From Deltaproteobacteria bacterium RIFOXYA12_FULL_61_11 (lineage in GTDB: Bacteria > Bdellovibrionota_F > JAHFAK01 > YA12-FULL-61-11): a stretch of DNA of 11,397 nucleotides. The notes beneath the pieces are model-generated. The model worked only from the letters and a program-made list of their open reading frames with translations. It did not search any database and had not been told where the DNA came from. The DNA lies in contig MGSU01000002.1 of NCBI GenBank assembly GCA_001799195.1, positions 23,273 through 34,669 of the forward strand, written 5' to 3'. Numbering within the stretch: position 1 is the stretch's first letter; each line of letters opens with the position of its first letter. The translations under genes and the position numbers were made by a program. Below, piece by piece: positions 3 through 11,397 of this stretch.

Positions 3-2963
3 GACTTACTGGAAAGGAATTTCCCGCTTCAGGTCGAACGCTCTTTGCGATACCGGGCCAGGCTCGAGGGCACGAACTCACTGCCTGAGCTGCTCTCTCT
101 GCTCGGGACCGAGCTCGGGGAAGGCCGATTGCGTTGGGATGCCCGGGGTTGGCATCTCGGGGAAGATCGGCTGGAGAGCCTCAGTGCGGGCGGGGACGAA
201 CACAGGATAGAGAACGGTGCAGGTCCGGCCCATGAAGACGACGGTTCCGGGTACCTCGCGGAGTGCCTCGCGTTGCTCGGGGGCGAAGACGCCGAGGCTA
301 CGGTGCCCTTCCTCCTGGGACGTCTGTTCCAGCGCGGCCTGTATGAGGTTCTCGAACGTTGTTGTGCGCTCGTGTCGGCGAGGAGCCATGAGGACAGGTG
401 TACGGCCTTTGCGACGCTCTACCTTGCCAGAACGGCCGCGGTCCGCGGGCAGGACCAGGCCGCGGAGGAACTGCTGCAGGCTCTTCCGAGGGAGGCAGGG
501 GAAGAACTGGAGCTGGAGAGGGCTATTGTCGCCGCGACCCTGGCGGGCCGGAAAGGGGATTTCGACCGGGCTGAGCACCTCCTCCTCGAGAACTTGCACC
601 ACCCCGGCAGGGACCGGTATCCCCATGCTCTCTCGAATACGCTGCTCAATGTCGGTATCATCCGGGCCAAGCGTGGGGAATACGATAAAGCCCTGGCGTG
701 TTATTACGATGCCCTCGAACTGAAACGCCGGCATGCAGATCCTTCCGGTGTGGTGTCCCTCTACAGCAACCTGGGGGCCTGTCATCACCTGAGGGGAGAT
801 GCCGAGGCGGCCCTCGTCCACTACCGAAGGGCGGCTGCCGAGGCCCAGCGCATTGGCGATCTCAAGAGCTATGCCATCGCGAGCTTCAATCAAGGCGACC
901 TCCTGTTGGATCGGGGGGAATTGAACGAGGCCGGCACCGTCTTGAAAGCGGCCGGGAGCATGGCGGAGCGCCTGGGTCTCGAGCCCGTGGCAGAGAGGGC
1001 CGCTCTGAACCTGTGCTTTCTCGAGGCGCTTTCCGGAACACCTCAAGGCGAGGCGCTGCGGCGGCTCGGGGAAGCGGAGACAACCGCTCGAGCCCGCGGG
1101 CATGTAGAACAGGAACTCTTGGCCATCGTACTCCAGGGCAAAACGTTGCAAGCTCACGGTAACCTTGGGGCCGCGGTCGCAGACTATCGCCGGGCCTTGC
1201 GTCGGGCCTTGGAAATACGGCATAGCCGGCTCATCCGGGAAATCGATCGGTTGCTCTCCGACGCCGAACGCGCCGCGGCAACCGCTGCAGCACCGGAGGT
1301 ACCCGGGGAACCTTCCGGGGGGGGTGTTCCGAGCAAAGCAGTGACGCTCGACGGAGCTGAAGCGTCCGATGGTCTCCTGCTGGTCTGGAACTCCTCGAGA
1401 GTCCTGAGGGAAACTCAGCCCGAGCCCGAACGTCTCCGAGACCTCTTGGGATATTTCACCGAGGTGCTTGGGTTTGCCCGGGCGGCCTATGTCGTTCGGG
1501 AGGCAGCCGGGCAATGGACCGGCCTCGGTCTCGGGTACGACGGTGGCCAGATCCTGGAGCTCGGACAAAAATTGCCGCTCGAGGGGTTGCTGCGGCCCGG
1601 TCCCTATCCTCGTTTGGTGGGCAACCTGGAACTGCTCGAGGGTTTGACGGAGGAGGTCGACGGTTCGCGGTTCGGCCTGAAAACGGTCCTCGTGGCGTGG
1701 TTCCCCGCTCTGCTGCCTCGTGGTTTGTATCTGGATCACCGTTTCCTCGCCCCGGCGGGTTTCCTCACCCCGGCGAAACGAGCTCTGCTCGAGTCCGTGC
1801 TGGGACTTCTGACCCAAGGCTGGACCGGACCGGGGGGGCTTCCTCCCTCCCCAGGGAACAGAGAGGCCCTTGTCCAGCCACCGCAGTCTTCCCGTGAAAG
1901 GACCGTCGCCTTGCTCTCGCGCAGTATCACCTTTTCCCTGACCGACCGGGTGCTGGGACGAGAGCCGCAGAGGATTGGGCAGCTCGGGTACCTGGTGGGG
2001 ACCTCTCGTCCACTGGAGGACCTCTATCGCCGGATGGAACAAGTGGCGCCGACCGATGTCCCGGTGCTACTGCTCGGCGAGAGCGGGGTGGGCAAAGAAG
2101 TTGTGGCCAGGGGACTGCATGACCTGAGCGGCCGCCGCGACCATTCCCTGGTGATCCAGAACTGCGCGGCCATTCCAGAAGCACTGGCCGAGAGCATCCT
2201 GTTCGGTCACGTCAAGGGTGCCTTCACCGGTGCGCACGAGGACCGGGCAGGCGTCCTGGCCGAGGCGGATCGCGGAACCCTCTTCCTCGACGAGGTCGGA
2301 GAGCTGCCCTTGCCGTTGCAGGCGACCCTCTTGCGCGTGTTGCAGGATCGACGGGTCCGTCCGGTGGGGGGGCAAGGTGAGAGGGCGGTCGATTTCCGGC
2401 TCTTGGCCGCGACCAATCGACCGTTGCGGGACTTGGTCGAGGGCGGCACCTTCCGCGAGGACCTCTATTTCCGTTTGCAGGTGGTGGTCTTGCGTGTGCC
2501 TCCCCTGCGGGAACGCCGCGAGGACATTCCCTTGTTGGTGGAGTACTTCAATACCACCGAGAGCCAGGCCCTGGGGCTGAAGGCCTTGACCTTTTCCACC
2601 GGCGCGATGGAAGTTCTGCTCGGCCACCCTTGGCCGGGCAATGTCCGGGAGTTGAAAAACGTTATCAACCGGTTGTTGGTGTTTTCTCAGGGGGCTCGCG
2701 TCGATGCCGAACAAGTCGGGCGACAATTCGAATGCGACCGCCCCCCCCGGGAGACGGCCATGCGCGAGGCGAGCGGTCCGTTGCGTCAGTACTTACAGAG
2801 GAAGGAACGTGCATATATCGAGCAGACCCTCGAACAGACCCAGGGCAATGTGACCGTGGCCGCGGAACGCCTGGGCATGTCGAGGGTGAATCTCTACGGG
2901 AGATTACGAGCGCTGGGTCTACCGCTGCCTGAACGGGGAGGGAGGGGCAAGAAGGATCGGTGA
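3..2963 (+). CDS. sigma-54-dependent transcriptional regulator, STAND/TPR-GAF-AAA+-Fis mosaic (5' partial)
   Basis: This is an enhancer-binding protein that would use ATP hydrolysis to open sigma-54 RNA polymerase promoters. The visible 986 codons are open to the left edge; a TTG at 45 could start, but the frame reads through it, so I take the gene as 5'-truncated. The first ~60 residues resemble the end of an AAA_16/STAND NTPase module seen in kinase-STAND-TPR regulators (inference). TPR-like helices follow at about 630-1260, then a GAF-like sensor region at about 1360-1810. The AAA+ domain (about 1986-2690) has Walker A GESGVGKE (2076-2099), an intact GAFTGA sigma-54 contact loop (2217-2234), Walker B LFLDE (2280-2294), the REDLYFRL segment and NVRELKN. 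A Fis-type helix-turn-helix (about 2844-2918) ends the protein. There is no receiver domain in the visible part. Four G/C runs of 7-8 nt lie in the gene. It converges with the sulfotransferase gene. Confidence 0.93.
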   Translation, partial: DLLERNFPLQVERSLRYRARLEGTNSLPELLSLLGTELGEGRLRWDARGWHLGEDRLESLSAGGDEHRIENGAGPAHEDDGSGYLAECLALLGGEDAEATVPFLLGRLFQRGLYEVLERCCALVSARSHEDRCTAFATLYLARTAAVRGQDQAAEELLQALPREAGEELELERAIVAATLAGRKGDFDRAEHLLLENLHHPGRDRYPHALSNTLLNVGIIRAKRGEYDKALACYYDALELKRRHADPSGVVSLYSNLGACHHLRGDAEAALVHYRRAAAEAQRIGDLKSYAIASFNQGDLLLDRGELNEAGTVLKAAGSMAERLGLEPVAERAALNLCFLEALSGTPQGEALRRLGEAETTARARGHVEQELLAIVLQGKTLQAHGNLGAAVADYRRALRRALEIRHSRLIREIDRLLSDAERAAATAAAPEVPGEPSGGGVPSKAVTLDGAEASDGLLLVWNSSRVLRETQPEPERLRDLLGYFTEVLGFARAAYVVREAAGQWTGLGLGYDGGQILELGQKLPLEGLLRPGPYPRLVGNLELLEGLTEEVDGSRFGLKTVLVAWFPALLPRGLYLDHRFLAPAGFLTPAKRALLESVLGLLTQGWTGPGGLPPSPGNREALVQPPQSSRERTVALLSRSITFSLTDRVLGREPQRIGQLGYLVGTSRPLEDLYRRMEQVAPTDVPVLLLGESGVGKEVVARGLHDLSGRRDHSLVIQNCAAIPEALAESILFGHVKGAFTGAHEDRAGVLAEADRGTLFLDEVGELPLPLQATLLRVLQDRRVRPVGGQGERAVDFRLLAATNRPLRDLVEGGTFREDLYFRLQVVVLRVPPLRERREDIPLLVEYFNTTESQALGLKALTFSTGAMEVLLGHPWPGNVRELKNVINRLLVFSQGARVDAEQVGRQFECDRPPRETAMREASGPLRQYLQRKERAYIEQTLEQTQGNVTVAAERLGMSRVNLYGRLRALGLPLPERGGRGKKDR

Positions 2964-6406: not shown

Positions 6407-7267
6407 TCAACCGCGCCGGCGCAGGGCGACCAGCCCGACCAAGGTGGTCAGGAGGAGCAGGGCAAGACTGCCGCTCTGGGCGTTGGTGTTGACCACGCCG
6501 CAGCTACCACCCTCGCCGCCGCTGACCGGTTGGGTGGTCGGACGGACGGGCTCGGAGGTCGGAGGTGCAACCACGACCGGTTCTTCGACGATCACGATCG
6601 GCTCTTCTTCCAAGTCGTCGAGATCGAGCGGCTCGGTCGGGATGATCGGCTCTTCGATGATGATGACCGGTTCGTCCTCGAGGTCTTCGAGGTCGAGCGG
6701 TTCGGTCGGGACCACGGGCTCTTCCTCGAAGCCCCACTCTTCCTCGGTGTCCCACTCTTCCTCTTCTTCTTCGCCGTAGAATTCCTCGTAGCCATCTTCG
6801 TCGTAGAACTCGCGGTACTCATCATCATAGTAGAAGTCCCAGGCATCGTCCTCGATCCAGGTCATGTAGGGCATGCGGATTGCCATCAGACATTCGTTGG
6901 TGCGCGTGGTGGTAGTATAACTGTCGCAATCTTCGAGCAACCAGGGATCGAAACTGTGATTGGCCACGATGGCGAGGCAGGTCATGGTTTCGGTCGCGGC
7001 GCTGTAACGGGAACAGACCGCGATGGCACCCTCTTCATAATATTCGTCGGCGACCAGGTCCAGACATTCCACGGTGAGCGCGGCGTCCACGAACCGATCG
7101 CATTCGTTGACTGCGGCCTGGTTGAAGTAGCGGCCGACGATGACGCTGTAGCACTCCGTGCGGAGGGAGTAGCTGTTGATTCGGTCGCAGGCGCCCTTGG
7201 GGGAAATTGCCCAGGCGCTGCTCGCGCACAAGGCTGCGAAGAGAATGGTACAGACGAGTGTCTTCAT
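6407..7267 (-). CDS. secreted C-x11-C repeat protein with acidic region and MYXO-CTERM-like C-terminus
   Basis: A 286-aa exported protein not recognised as a named family. Residues 1-20 are a Sec signal peptide ending AWA. Residues 27-142 are four repeats of exactly 29 residues, each with cysteines 12 apart: C27/C39, C56/C68, C85/C97, C114/C126. Residues 139-232 are strongly acidic (a run of six Glu, many Asp/Tyr/Phe) and include two copies of a 23-residue EEP..PTEPLDL unit. A Pro/Thr/Gly linker leads to S255-C256-G257, a hydrophobic stretch at about 266-281 and RRRG at the end, the layout of MYXO-CTERM/GlyGly-CTERM-type sorting signals. The ATG at 7267 is chosen for the signal peptide and the GGAGG about 8 nt upstream; a longer frame to 7351 is rejected. 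A sigma-54 promoter candidate lies upstream. Likely surface-anchored by inference. Confidence 0.85.
   Translation of the reverse strand: MKTLVCTILFAALCASSAWAISPKGACDRINSYSLRTECYSVIVGRYFNQAAVNECDRFVDAALTVECLDLVADEYYEEGAIAVCSRYSAATETMTCLAIVANHSFDPWLLEDCDSYTTTTRTNECLMAIRMPYMTWIEDDAWDFYYDDEYREFYDEDGYEEFYGEEEEEEWDTEEEWGFEEEPVVPTEPLDLEDLEDEPVIIIEEPIIPTEPLDLDDLEEEPIVIVEEPVVVAPPTSEPVRPTTQPVSGGEGGSCGVVNTNAQSGSLALLLLTTLVGLVALRRRG
6587..6724 (-). repeat. two tandem 23-residue acidic repeats
   Basis: Residues 182-204 and 205-227 of the secreted repeat protein are near-identical units (EEP-[VI][VI]-PTEPLDL-x-DLE-x-EP), with a third partial copy EEPVV after them. In DNA this is two diverged 69-bp copies. 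The alternating Pro/acidic/Val-Ile pattern suggests an extended, negatively charged stalk between the folded repeat domain and the membrane anchor. Confidence 0.85.
6842..7189 (-). repeat. four tandem 29-residue C-x11-C repeats
   Basis: Units start at C27, C56, C85 and C114 of the secreted protein, with no insertion or deletion in the cysteine spacing. Shared features are C-[DS]-[RS] at the start, [ET]-C-[LY] at the second cysteine, and a hydrophobic [IVL]-[VA] stretch just after it. Exact spacing suggests one disulfide per unit in a short helical or hairpin repeat. Confidence 0.9.
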
Positions 7268-7368
7268 GGAATACTCCTCCTTTTCTATGTTCACTGTTCT
7301 TCCAGTTACCACCGTGGATCGTGCTGTGGGGGCCACACCTGTGGCGACCACCCGTGGCCATGGCTTTG

Positions 7369-7491: not shown

Positions 7492-8748
7492 TCACGCTTG
7501 CCAGACTGCGACTTGATACCCGGCTCGCTGGATGGTGGCTTCGAGCAGAGCCCGATCCAGGTTCTTGCCGTGTACCTCGACCCGGCCGGACGTGAGTTCG
7601 ATATCGACCTCCTGGATACCGGGCAGGGAGCCGACCTGCTGCCGGAGGTTCGCGACGCAGCGGTGGCAACTCATCCCGGTAACGGTGAGAACGAGTCTCT
7701 CGTTCGAGGGAGCGAGGAGCGAACTGCTCCTAGGAAAACGCACCCTGCGCAAGATTCTCAGACCGAGCAGATAGACCAGGAGTGCGAGGAGGAGCAGAGC
7801 GGAGAGGAGTGAGAGGAAGCCGGAGTGGTGGAGCCCTTGGTGGAGGTGCTGGACCTCGTTCGCTCGGGGGAGGATCCAATCGAAAGCAATTCCCAGAAGC
7901 AGACTCATGCCGGCCACGGTGCCGAGATAGATGGCGAGGATGCGTGGGCCGAGGACGCGACCGATGATGCCGAGGGTGGCGATATTGGTCGCAGGACCGG
8001 CCATGAGGAACACCAAGGCTGTGCCGGTGGGGAGGCCGGCGGCGACCAAAGCCGCTGCGATGGGCACCGAACTGGTGGTACAGACATAGAGGGGAATGGA
8101 GAGCAGCAGCACCAGGAGGAGGCCCGTGGGACCAGTTGCCCAGGTTGTTCCTGCCAGGAGCTGAGGTGGGAGCAGGGTGGTGATCGCCGCTGCCGCCAAT
8201 ACCCCGCCCAATAGCCAGAGGTCGATGGCTGCTAAGATATCGAACAGGGCATACCGCAGGGCTTCGAGCAGCTTTGGTATGCCACGGGAGTGGCTGCTGA
8301 CAGGAGGTAGTGGGCAGGACACTGGCAACTCCTGCGTCGAGTTGCCGCCGAACCGCTCGGCGAGCAGGCCGCCGAGCAGGCCCGTGACAAAGGCGGCGAA
8401 GACCTTGAACAAGGCGAAAGGCCAACCGAGGAAGGAAGCCGAGACCAGGATCGAATCCACGCCGGTCTGCGGGGTACTGATGAGGAAGCCTATCGCCGCT
8501 CCCCGCGAGGCCCCGGCGTTGCGCAGCCCCATGGCGGTGGGAACGACCCCGCAAGAGCAAAGGGGCATCGGAATACCCAACAGTACGGCGCGTAGGATGC
8601 TCGGCAATCCCGGACGGGAAAGGTTGGCCCTGATCAGGCTCGGCGGCAGGAGGACGTGAAGGAGTCCTGCCAGGAACAAACCGAGGAGCATCGGAGGGGC
8701 GAGTTCGAGCATGATACTCCAGGTGTTGAGTGCGTAGGCTTGCAGCAT
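7492..8748 (-). CDS. SO_0444/DUF318-type metal efflux permease with C-terminal HMA domain
   Basis: A 418-aa inner-membrane permease with about eight to ten hydrophobic segments in two halves. Half 1 carries PMPLCSCGVVP (60-70), with C64 and C66. Half 2 carries YVCTTSSVP (221-229) followed by ALVFLMAGPATN (244-255). This paired cysteine arrangement is typical of the SO_0444 Cu/Zn efflux group and related DUF318/ArsP permeases. A His-rich segment (H301, H303, H307, H308) precedes the last membrane segment. Residues about 352-416 form an HMA ferredoxin-like domain with GMSCHRC (358-364), a CxxC soft-metal site that could pass metal to the pore. The ATG at 8748 is preferred over an in-frame TTG at 8778 because GGAG/AGGG lies upstream. 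Substrate (Cu, Zn or another soft metal, perhaps As) is not decided. No metal regulator is adjacent. Confidence 0.87.
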   Translation of the reverse strand: MLQAYALNTWSIMLELAPPMLLGLFLAGLLHVLLPPSLIRANLSRPGLPSILRAVLLGIPMPLCSCGVVPTAMGLRNAGASRGAAIGFLISTPQTGVDSILVSASFLGWPFALFKVFAAFVTGLLGGLLAERFGGNSTQELPVSCPLPPVSSHSRGIPKLLEALRYALFDILAAIDLWLLGGVLAAAAITTLLPPQLLAGTTWATGPTGLLLVLLLSIPLYVCTTSSVPIAAALVAAGLPTGTALVFLMAGPATNIATLGIIGRVLGPRILAIYLGTVAGMSLLLGIAFDWILPRANEVQHLHQGLHHSGFLSLLSALLLLALLVYLLGLRILRRVRFPRSSSLLAPSNERLVLTVTGMSCHRCVANLRQQVGSLPGIQEVDIELTSGRVEVHGKNLDRALLEATIQRAGYQVAVWQA

Positions 8749-8948
8749 GGGTCGCCCTCTCCAGTGGTCGAGGGTCAACCATGGATAGTTGATCGGGGGG
8801 TGTCAAGGAGCAAGGGCGCAACCGGGTACTCGAGCACCGCGGAGGATCGGAGCAAACGCCTGCTGCTTGATCCTTCTCGTCCGCTGTGGCACTCTTCCCA
8901 GTCCAGGCCCTGTCATGGGAACAACCACGGTCATTGAGGAGACCAGTA

Positions 8949-11397
8949 ATGAAGCTTTTTTTCCTCCTTCCGCTCCTCGCGCTCTCGGCCTGTCAGTTGC
9001 CGGGAACCGAGACGACAACCCCTGTGCAACCCCAAGCCCCCTCGGGCTATGCCCAGCCCTTCGTCTTCGACGGAGAACCGGTGCGTTTCGCCGTGGACGA
9101 GGAGTGCTTCGATGAATGCAGAACGCATATCAATATCAGTGGATTGAGAACACAGGCCAATCTGGACTGTTCCCAATACGAAGAATACACCCCTCCCCAG
9201 ATGGTCGCCTGCGCGAACGACACCTACAATGCCCTCTATGATGGAGAGATCGAGGCTTGCCGTCACGAATGTAACCTTCCCGACGACAACGACGGTGGGA
9301 CGACCGGCGGCGGTGGGACGACCGGCGGCGGGACGACCGGCGGCGGTTGTGGCGTGGGCACTGTGGTCGGTTGTCTCTATTACAGTTGCACCATGAAGCT
9401 CGACGTTTTCTCCGGTGGTCAGCGCTGCATCGTGGCCGGTTTCTGTGACGAAGGGTATCCGAACACGGACCCATGTAATCGCGGTACCGAGGACGACGAT
9501 GACGACAATGCCGATGACGGTGAGGACGACAACGGCGGGAACGGCGATGATGGAAATGACGACGGCGGGAACGATAACGGCGGAAACGACGGTGACGGGG
9601 ACGACGATGGCGAAGACCCTCCGGCACCGATCCCGAACCCCTGCGCTGCTTACATCGGTCCTGGGACCGGCGAAGGCAACGGTCCGATCGACTTGGCGGG
9701 CAAGGGTTCCATCCAGTGCCAGAGTGGGTTCGTCCTCGGGGACACGCTCTATCAAGGCTACTGGCGCAGTAACGAAGGTTGGTCCAGGACCGTGCCGCTC
9801 CGCGATTGCCGACCGCAGTGGGCCGAAGCCTCGGTCTGGGCAGGCCCGATAGCGGTCGACGATCTACCGGGCAGCGGCGACATGCAAGCCCAGAGCGGGT
9901 ATGTGATCGGCCAGACCCTGCACCAGGGTTTCTGGCGGGGTAACAAGGGGTATGTGCGAGAGGTCCCCGTGGTCAATGGGGCGCCGGGTTGGGCTCAGGC
10001 TAAAGCTTGGTCCGCTCCTATCGAACTCGACGGTCTGCCCGGGACCGGCGAGGTGGAGAGCCTGACCGCCTATGTCCTCGGTACGACCCTGCACCAGGGG
10101 ATGTGGAGAGGAGGCCTTGGCTATATGAGGACCGTGCCGATCGTCGAGGGCGTGGTTACCTGGGCCGAAGCCTCGGTCTGGGGCGAACCGCTCCAACCCG
10201 ACAGCGTCATCGGTGTCGGCCAGATGCAATCCCAGAACGCCTTCCCCATCGGAGGTACCTTGCACCAGGGGTTCTGGCGCGGTGACCAGGGCTGGTACCG
10301 CACCGTGCCGATCGTCGCCGGGGTGGTCACGTGGACCGACGCCGGCTATTGGCACGGACCTATGACCTACGGTGGCGAGGAGACCCCGCCGGGGCTGCCC
10401 ACCTGCCTGACCGGTCTCGAATGCAGCGGAGATGCAGGTCTCGACGGGTACCTGCATCATTGCCTTGACGGTGATGGAAGCGAGAAGTTCTGTTGTGCCT
10501 TCGACAAGGTGCTCAACGAGGCTGACACGGCCTGCGTGGTTCCGGTCACCCTGCCGCTCTGTCCCGTGGGGCTAGCGTGTTCGGCCAATGCCGCACTCGC
10601 GGGTCAACAACACCACTGCGCGACTGCCGAGGGTGCAGAGCGTTTCTGTTGCGCCACGGGCATGGACCTCAATGAGGCCGGAACCGCTTGTATCGCCCCG
10701 CCGATCCTGCCGGACTGTCCGGGTGGCGTGCAATGCACGACGAACGTCGCTCTGCAGGCCCCGGCGTACCATTGTCTCAACGCCGCCGAACAGGAAGTCT
10801 ACTGCTGTGCCCTGGGCAAGGTCCTCGATGGCCTGACCTGCGTCGTGCCCTTGCCAAGCGCCGGTCTTGCCGGTAGCGGGACCATGCGTTCCCAGGACGG
10901 TTTCGTTCTCGGCACCACCCTGTACCAAGGGTATTGGCGTGGTACCCAGGGCTGGTCGCGCACCGTACCGATCGTCTCCGGTACCCCGAATTGGAACGGG
11001 GCCACGGCCTGGTCGGGCCCGATAGCCCTCACCGCGCTCGCCGGCACGGGCGATATCCAGAGCCAAGCAGCGTATGTCCTCGGCGGCAAGGTCTACCAGG
11101 GCTATTGGCGGGGCAACCAGGGGGATACCCGAGAGGTCCCGATCGTGAACAACGCGCCCGACTGGGCTCACGCGACTGCCTGGGCCGGTCCCATCGCCAT
11201 CACCGCCCTGCCCGGGAGCGGGGACATGCAAGCTCAGGCCTCGTATATACTGGGGGCCTCCTTGCAACAGAGTTACTGGCGCGGCGGGAAGGGGTATTAT
11301 CGCAGCGTGCCCATTGTCGACGGTGTGGTGAAATGGGCCGACGCCGGAGCCTGGTCCGCACCGCTCGAACTCACCACCCTGCCCGGCGCGGGCGAGA
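8949..11397 (+). CDS. large modular repeat lipoprotein (3' partial)
   Basis: The frame is open to the right edge (816 codons visible). Residues 1-15 are a lipoprotein signal peptide with lipobox LSAC and lipidated C15; +2 is Gln, compatible with outer-membrane sorting. GAGGAG lies 7 nt before the ATG. Domain order: N-terminal six-cysteine segment with twin CX3C (C53/C57, C104/C108, plus C74 and C88); Gly/Thr linker (114-133); second Cys-rich patch (C134-C176); Asp/Asn/Gly linker (181-222); four 57-residue repeats (249-476); three six-cysteine modules (486-631); three more 57-residue repeats (640-810); start of an eighth at 811. The 57-residue unit has LG-x4-QG[YF]WRG, then R-x-VP, then W-x2-A-x2-W. 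Four short beta strands per unit would suit a beta-propeller, but this is inference and I know no matching family. Likely a cell-surface binding protein. Confidence 0.88.
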   Translation, partial: MKLFFLLPLLALSACQLPGTETTTPVQPQAPSGYAQPFVFDGEPVRFAVDEECFDECRTHINISGLRTQANLDCSQYEEYTPPQMVACANDTYNALYDGEIEACRHECNLPDDNDGGTTGGGGTTGGGTTGGGCGVGTVVGCLYYSCTMKLDVFSGGQRCIVAGFCDEGYPNTDPCNRGTEDDDDDNADDGEDDNGGNGDDGNDDGGNDNGGNDGDGDDDGEDPPAPIPNPCAAYIGPGTGEGNGPIDLAGKGSIQCQSGFVLGDTLYQGYWRSNEGWSRTVPLRDCRPQWAEASVWAGPIAVDDLPGSGDMQAQSGYVIGQTLHQGFWRGNKGYVREVPVVNGAPGWAQAKAWSAPIELDGLPGTGEVESLTAYVLGTTLHQGMWRGGLGYMRTVPIVEGVVTWAEASVWGEPLQPDSVIGVGQMQSQNAFPIGGTLHQGFWRGDQGWYRTVPIVAGVVTWTDAGYWHGPMTYGGEETPPGLPTCLTGLECSGDAGLDGYLHHCLDGDGSEKFCCAFDKVLNEADTACVVPVTLPLCPVGLACSANAALAGQQHHCATAEGAERFCCATGMDLNEAGTACIAPPILPDCPGGVQCTTNVALQAPAYHCLNAAEQEVYCCALGKVLDGLTCVVPLPSAGLAGSGTMRSQDGFVLGTTLYQGYWRGTQGWSRTVPIVSGTPNWNGATAWSGPIALTALAGTGDIQSQAAYVLGGKVYQGYWRGNQGDTREVPIVNNAPDWAHATAWAGPIAITALPGSGDMQAQASYILGASLQQSYWRGGKGYYRSVPIVDGVVKWADAGAWSAPLELTTLPGAGE
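9297..9344 (+). repeat. three 15-bp repeats encoding a Gly-Thr-Thr-Gly linker
   Basis: GGGACGACCGGCGGC occurs three times (9297, 9315, 9330), the first two separated by GGT. They encode the Gly/Thr-rich linker after the first Cys-rich domain of the lipoprotein. Perfect short tandem copies like these can vary in number by slippage. Confidence 0.85.
9489..9614 (+). repeat. Asp/Asn/Gly low-complexity linker
   Basis: Residues 181-222 of the lipoprotein are almost entirely Asp, Asn, Gly and Glu, built from repeats of GAC/GAT/AAC/GGC codons. This is probably an extended acidic spacer, perhaps Ca2+-binding, between the N-terminal domains and the 57-residue repeats. It does not match the RTX nonapeptide spacing. 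Confidence 0.8.
9693..10376 (+). repeat. first block of four 57-residue (171-bp) repeats
   Basis: Units begin at L249, L306, L363 and V420 of the lipoprotein, with no length change between units. Shared positions include G at 3 and 5, LG or IG near 15-16, QG-x-WR at 21-25, VP at 34-35, W at 43, A at 46, W at 49 and P at 52. The first unit alone carries two cysteines (C257, C287). Confidence 0.93.
10404..10841 (+). repeat. three tandem six-cysteine modules
   Basis: Modules begin at C486, C538 and C590, spaced exactly 52 residues. Each follows C-x5-C-x12-C-x9-CC-x12-C; the last is shortened to x10 before the final cysteine. Hydrophobic/Pro linkers join them. The invariant pattern implies three disulfides per module. 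The array sits between two blocks of 57-residue repeats. Confidence 0.93.
10866..11397 (+). repeat. second block of 57-residue repeats, running off the window
   Basis: Units begin at L640, L697 and L754, and an eighth begins at L811 just before the edge. Period and key residues are the same as in the first block. Unit 5 is closest to unit 1 by eye (33 of 57 identical); unit 6 shares REVP with unit 2, and unit 7 shares GVV-x-W with units 3 and 4. Confidence 0.93.

What the first reader, a model, noticed from the sequence alone, without database searches (positions are those of the whole stretch)
8949..11397. Mosaic surface lipoprotein built on an unrecognised 57-residue repeat
At least seven units keep an exact 57-residue length while sequence diverges to about 50-60% identity, which implies a strict structural unit. 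The conserved QG[YF]WRG, R-x-VP and W-x2-A-x2-W positions suggest a four-stranded blade, and 4 + 3 or more units would suit a propeller or two. I do not know a named family with this signature. The lipobox places it on the cell surface or in the periplasm, so adhesion or glycan binding is plausible.
Basis: partly seen in the sequence, partly recalled or inferred. Interest (0 to 1): 0.75.

Follow-up and report, generated by a model that had tools for sequence, protein, structure and literature searches.

The report
New four-bladed propeller in bacterial lipoprotein
A bacterial surface lipoprotein carries a repeat that appears to fold into a four-bladed propeller ring, a shape otherwise known from the hemopexin family, with an unrelated sequence that other bacteria attach to secreted enzymes and toxin-like proteins, probably to help them stick to targets.

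Summary
An ORF (8949 to contig end) encodes a lipoprotein with seven complete 57-residue units (aa 251-478 and 642-812) plus the first residues of an eighth, separated by three 6-Cys modules. Pfam, NCBIfam and PDB sequence searches find no known family. A DNA-pattern scan and genome searches found true relatives only in Chloroflexota (two orders). There the module sits on RHS/YD-repeat proteins, an alkaline phosphatase, S1-type proteases and an M10-like metalloprotease. All nine complete arrays in those relatives, and window array 1, amount to exactly four units. The ring is cut either before unit position 1 or after position 12, as expected for a closed ring. AlphaFold2 models of both registers (pLDDT 88-89, pTM 0.83-0.84) match four-bladed hemopexin-fold structures best (Z up to 15.6 and 13.4), clearly above 5- to 7-bladed propellers. 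Profile comparison finds no sequence relation to hemopexin domains, although two hemopexin-fold families detect each other. So this is a new sequence family of four-bladed propellers, most likely a mobile, non-catalytic binding/targeting module. The fold is well supported (by prediction); ligand and function are inferred.

The parts
8936..8941 (+). probable ribosome-binding site GAGGAG, seven bases before ATG 8949
   Evidence: sequence
8949..11397 (+). CDS of the mosaic lipoprotein, 816 aa read, 3' end missing at the contig end
   Evidence: contig G000:C2 ends at this base
8949..8993 (+). signal peptide with lipobox LSAC (lipidated Cys15)
   Evidence: sequence reading of the translation; no signal-peptide predictor was available
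8994..9485 (+). N-terminal Cys-containing region, no family match
9486..9641 (+). Asp/Gly/Asn-rich linker
9699..9869 (+). propeller 1, blade unit 1 (aa 251-307)
   Evidence: AF2 model
9870..10040 (+). propeller 1, blade unit 2 (aa 308-364)
10041..10211 (+). propeller 1, blade unit 3 (aa 365-421)
10212..10382 (+). propeller 1, blade unit 4 (aa 422-478)
10404..10535 (+). 6-Cys module 1 (aa 486-529)
10560..10691 (+). 6-Cys module 2 (aa 538-581)
10716..10841 (+). 6-Cys module 3 (aa 590-631)
10872..11042 (+). propeller 2, blade unit 1 (aa 642-698)
11043..11213 (+). propeller 2, blade unit 2 (aa 699-755)
11214..11384 (+). propeller 2, blade unit 3 (aa 756-812)
11385..11396 (+). first four residues (GAGE) of the expected fourth blade of propeller 2
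   Evidence: sequence; matches the unit start G-x-G; inferred

Best explanation
The 57-residue unit is one four-stranded blade, and four units form a closed four-bladed beta-propeller with the hemopexin fold but no detectable hemopexin sequence relation. The window lipoprotein carries one complete ring, three small disulphide modules, and a second ring whose last blade is cut off by the contig end. In other bacteria the same ring is fused to secreted proteases, a phosphatase and RHS toxin-like proteins, so it most likely works as a non-catalytic binding or targeting module that holds its carrier on an extracellular or cell-surface polymer or protein, much as hemopexin domains target matrix metalloproteases. 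Shown by computation: repeat, four-unit arrays, predicted fold, module shuffling. Inferred: surface exposure, binding, ligand. About 0.93 for the fold, about 0.6 for a binding/targeting role.
For: Nine complete arrays in eight Chloroflexota proteins, and window array 1, each amount to four units (in L094, L096 and L098 part of the units were counted by eye). Eight begin at unit position ~13 and end with positions 1-12; L067 and the window keep the first strand at the N-terminus: two ways to close one ring. AF2 of window aa 236-480: pLDDT 88.3, pTM 0.84; VIA puts only hemopexin-fold proteins in ranks 1-23 (Z 11.7-15.6), then GH32/GH43 five-bladed propellers at Z 10.5 or less. AF2 of the L068 ring: pLDDT 88.7, pTM 0.83, last strand 231-239 at the C-terminus; 13 hemopexin-fold rows Z 11.2-13.4, next 8.8. 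Partners: alkaline phosphatase PF00245 E 3e-56, RHS repeats, weak M10 and trypsin matches. Blades of L068 and L095 pair 2-2, 3-3, 4-4 in the tree, so the ring moved as a whole between carriers.
Against: No experiment, no ligand. Both AF2 models use the same 12 related sequences, so they are not fully independent. The models' coordinates could not be read here, so closure was judged from strand order, confidence and fold matches. Raw Foldseek TM-scores are low (0.3-0.5) and its first ranks mix propellers of many sizes. The protein is incomplete and propeller 2 is seen only in part. Partners are diverse, so the binding role could differ between them or the ring could be only a spacer.
Confidence: 0.75

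Rival explanations
1. It is a remote but true member of the hemopexin family (common descent with PF00045), diverged beyond sequence recognition.
For: Same four-bladed fold with Z up to 15.6; by eye the unit parallels the hemopexin motif order (inner strand, xWR/YWR strand, W-x-G-x-P turn).
Against: No Pfam hit at E<=10 and no hemopexin match among family members; profile comparison Prob 0.2 and 0.05, whereas MMP and plant albumin hemopexin domains find each other at Prob 84, E 8e-6 with even shallower profiles.
Confidence: 0.3
2. A single seven-bladed (4+3) propeller, interrupted by the Cys-rich insert.
For: Seven complete units are seen in the window.
Against: Residues GAGE start an eighth unit before the contig ends; four units alone are predicted as a ring at high confidence; all relatives have arrays of four, and the eight-unit relative L066 has a closing strand after each four.
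Confidence: 0.03
3. A tectonin/PLL/AAL-like lectin propeller with one sugar site per blade.
For: Conserved W and R in each blade; such lectins appear among lower structural matches.
Against: Those match at Z 7.4-8.3 and mostly partially, against 11-15.6 for four-bladed proteins; no PDB sequence match at E<=10.
Confidence: 0.04
4. The ring is only a rigid spacer or protease-resistant scaffold without a ligand.
For: Conserved residues may simply be blade-packing residues; no ligand site was shown.
Against: It is the terminal domain in L068, L093, L096 and L098, which a spacer would not be; it moves between unrelated carriers.
Confidence: 0.2

Closest known systems
Hemopexin-like domain (PF00045; SCOP b.66.1.1: MMP C-terminal domains, hemopexin, vitronectin)
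   Same: Predicted four-bladed propeller fold, about 50-60 residues per blade, used as an accessory module on secreted proteins including metalloproteases.
   Different: No detectable sequence or profile similarity; strict 57-residue blades that still resemble each other; found here in Chloroflexota and one other bacterial phylum.
Plant PA2 albumins (LS-24, CP4, Cicer hemagglutinating albumin)
   Same: Four-bladed ring with Z 15.1-15.4 to the window model.
   Different: Single free domain in seeds; profile comparison Prob 0.05.
PLL/PHL, AOL/FleA and other 6- to 7-bladed lectin propellers
   Same: Repeated-blade propellers with aromatic residues in each blade.
   Different: Six or seven blades; weaker and mostly partial structural match; no sequence match.

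Membership tests
Hemopexin family (PF00045) | four-bladed beta-propeller fold | tested here: met
   AF2 models and VIA comparison, (prediction, not an experimental structure)
Hemopexin family (PF00045) | match to the hemopexin repeat profile | tested here: not met
   no Pfam match at E<=10 for the window protein, none to hemopexin among 12 family members at E<=1; hhalign Prob 0.2 / 0.05 with positive control 83.7
Hemopexin family (PF00045) | ion or heme in the central channel | not testable with these tools
   needs an experimental structure
PLL/AAL/tectonin lectin propellers | five to seven blades per ring | tested here: not met
   all complete arrays have four units
PLL/AAL/tectonin lectin propellers | profile or sequence similarity | tested here: inconclusive
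   no PDB sequence hit at E<=10 and no Pfam hit; deep profile comparison was not run
PLL/AAL/tectonin lectin propellers | glycan binding | not testable with these tools
   needs a binding assay
Bacterial lipoproteins | N-terminal signal with lipobox ending in Cys | tested here: met
   MKLFFLLPLLALSAC, read by eye

The most novel reading that the evidence does not exclude
A second, separately amplified sequence family of four-bladed propellers, independent of hemopexin, that spreads between bacterial phyla as a plug-in targeting module and has produced, by convergence, a bacterial metalloprotease-plus-four-bladed-propeller protein resembling animal MMPs in composition, though with the domain order reversed.
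Probability: 0.4. Interest if true: 0.65.

Novelty: new variant of a known kind. Interest (0 to 1): 0.55.

Why it matters
Four-bladed propellers have been represented by essentially one family: Kopec and Lupas 2013 (PMC3797127) name one four-bladed cluster, Hemopexin-like b.66.1.1, and the papers found for 'four-bladed beta-propeller' are, judged from titles and abstracts, mostly about hemopexin-type proteins. A bacterial four-bladed family with unrelated sequence and still-recognisable blade repeats offers a test of whether the smallest propeller arose more than once. It would also annotate a so far unnamed module on secreted proteases, phosphatases and RHS proteins of Chloroflexota.

Tried and rejected
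Protein searches of plasmids and phages: none. Relatives across the domain: weak single hits at E 0.004-0.009 among 386 genomes, as expected by chance. The window's phylum is represented by only two genomes, the other without the repeat. Weak Pfam and PHROGs hits of family members do not recur consistently and were dismissed. PDB phmmer hits of the full protein are low-complexity or chance. Seven-bladed ring, known lectin family and spurious ORF: considered and rejected. A tree of single blades is too short to date the domain duplication or prove transfer between phyla (17 of 25 branches open).

Full report
Observation. The window's last ORF begins at ATG 8949 behind GAGGAG, carries a lipobox (LSAC) and runs to the end of contig C2 of its genome, so the 3' end is missing. 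Seven complete units of exactly 57 aa lie in two blocks, aa 251-478 and 642-812, with 40-61% identity; identity at lag 57 is 0.485 against at most 0.151 at any lag that is not a multiple of 57. The DNA pattern of the core motif hits all seven and none in shuffled sequence. The units differ most at third codon positions. The last four residues (GAGE) look like the start of an eighth unit.

Search for relatives. Pfam and NCBIfam gave nothing at E<=10, and plasmids and phages nothing. The repeat occurs in one gene only of its own genome. A degenerate DNA pattern for QGxWRGxxGxxRxVP scanned over one genome for each of 84,980 species gave 16 stretches, of which three carry real arrays: Anaerolineae bacterium CHL1 (L046/L066), Ardenticatenaceae bacterium MO_167.B30 (L043/L067) and Caldilineaceae bacterium HKST-UBA29 (L044/L068). 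Profile searches of two orders of that class added five genomes. A sample of 396 genomes of the class gave 7 positives, all already known, but only 16 candidates per genome were scored there, so rarer or weaker cases may be missed. The module is therefore patchy: two Chloroflexota orders plus the window's phylum.

Four units make a ring. In the relatives, arrays that can be read completely are L066 (two), L067, L068, L093, L094, L095, L096 and L098: nine arrays, each of four units (in L094, L096 and L098 one or more diverged units fall below the profile or match only in part and were counted by eye from the spacing). Eight start at unit position about 13 and finish with the first 12-13 positions of a fifth unit, as in L068, which ends ...GSGTVQTQANYVFP-stop. 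L067 and window array 1 instead keep that strand at the N-terminus and stop after unit 4. Both cuts give the same set of strands, which is what closure of a ring by either terminus predicts. L066 shows a closing strand after each of its two groups of four, which argues against an eight-bladed ring there and, by analogy, against a seven-bladed ring in the window.

Fold. AlphaFold2 on window aa 236-480 with 12 related sequences gave pLDDT 88.3 and pTM 0.84, with three long strands per unit and a short fourth in some. The L068 ring gave pLDDT 88.7 and pTM 0.83 with strands A-D in regular order and a final strand 231-239 that replaces the missing strand A of blade 1. Foldseek's own ranking is a mixture of propellers with low TM-scores. 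In the second comparison the hemopexin alignments stop at model residue 225-229, before the closing strand, as a circular permutation by one strand would give. AOL/FleA and PLL/PHL lectins reach 7.4-8.3. These are predictions; coordinates could not be inspected here.

Family membership. Sequence profiles of the new module and of MMP or plant-albumin hemopexin domains do not match (Prob 0.2 and 0.05), although those two hemopexin-fold groups, with only three and two sequences, find each other (Prob 83.7; sequences taken from PDB hits). PDB sequences give no hit at E<=10 with either the blade or the ring profile. The fold is that of hemopexin; membership of the hemopexin family is not supported, and distant common descent is not excluded.

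How it probably works. The ring is joined to an alkaline phosphatase (PF00245, E 3e-56; L093), to RHS/YD-repeat proteins (L066 with a C-terminal glutamine-deamidase domain, L067, L094), to serine proteases with a GDSGSP motif (L096, L098; only weak or no family matches) and to a protein with HEMGHVFGLYH (L095; weak M10 match, E 0.005). Several carriers end with the ring. Blades of L068 and L095, which have different carriers, pair 2-2, 3-3 and 4-4 in the tree, so the ring was already mature when it moved. This is the behaviour of an accessory binding module. I infer that it holds its carrier near a surface, matrix or partner, as hemopexin domains do for MMPs. Which ligand, and whether the conserved Trp/Arg positions are binding or packing residues, was not determined. 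For the lipoprotein, the acidic linker would let two rings and three 6-Cys modules reach out from the membrane; this is inference.

Cys modules. The 42-46-residue pattern C-x-x-G-L-x-C...C...CC...LN...C occurs 18 times by a regular-expression count in four proteins of this genome: the window protein, two neighbouring ORFs on C93 and one on C128. No Pfam match. Their presence ties contig C2 to the rest of the assembly.

Verdict. A real, unnamed repeat; a new sequence family with a known fold (four-bladed propeller); function as a binding/targeting module is the most likely reading but unproven.

Noticed in passing
window 10404-10841; L105 (C93), L106 (C128): A lineage-specific 6-Cys module (CxxGLxC...C...CC...LN...C), 18 copies in four proteins of this genome, without a Pfam match.
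   Followed up: partly
window 6410-7351 (-): Secreted Cys- and Glu-rich protein with a C-terminus resembling a MYXO-CTERM sorting signal (SCGVVNTNAQSGSLALLLLTTLVGLVALRRRG); no Pfam match.
   Followed up: no
window 7495-8778 (-): ArsP_1-type permease with a heavy-metal-associated (HMA) domain fused at its C-terminus.
   Followed up: no
L095:1729-3198 (-): Chloroflexota protein with the four-bladed ring followed by an HExxHxxGxxH metallopeptidase-like region: MMP-like composition in reversed order.
   Followed up: partly
L096:3455-5410 (-), L098:4263-6224 (-): S1-type protease tails carry a diverged ring in which two blade types alternate (A-B-A-B), with extra Cys residues in the A blades.
   Followed up: no
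L093:2-244 (+) and 639-2531 (+): The end of a second, nearly identical ring lies just upstream of the phosphatase gene at the contig start, suggesting a tandem gene duplication.
   Followed up: no
L066:2916-11804 (+): RHS protein with two tandem, nearly identical rings before its RHS C-terminal core, and a Gln_deamidase_2 domain at the C-terminus.
   Followed up: partly
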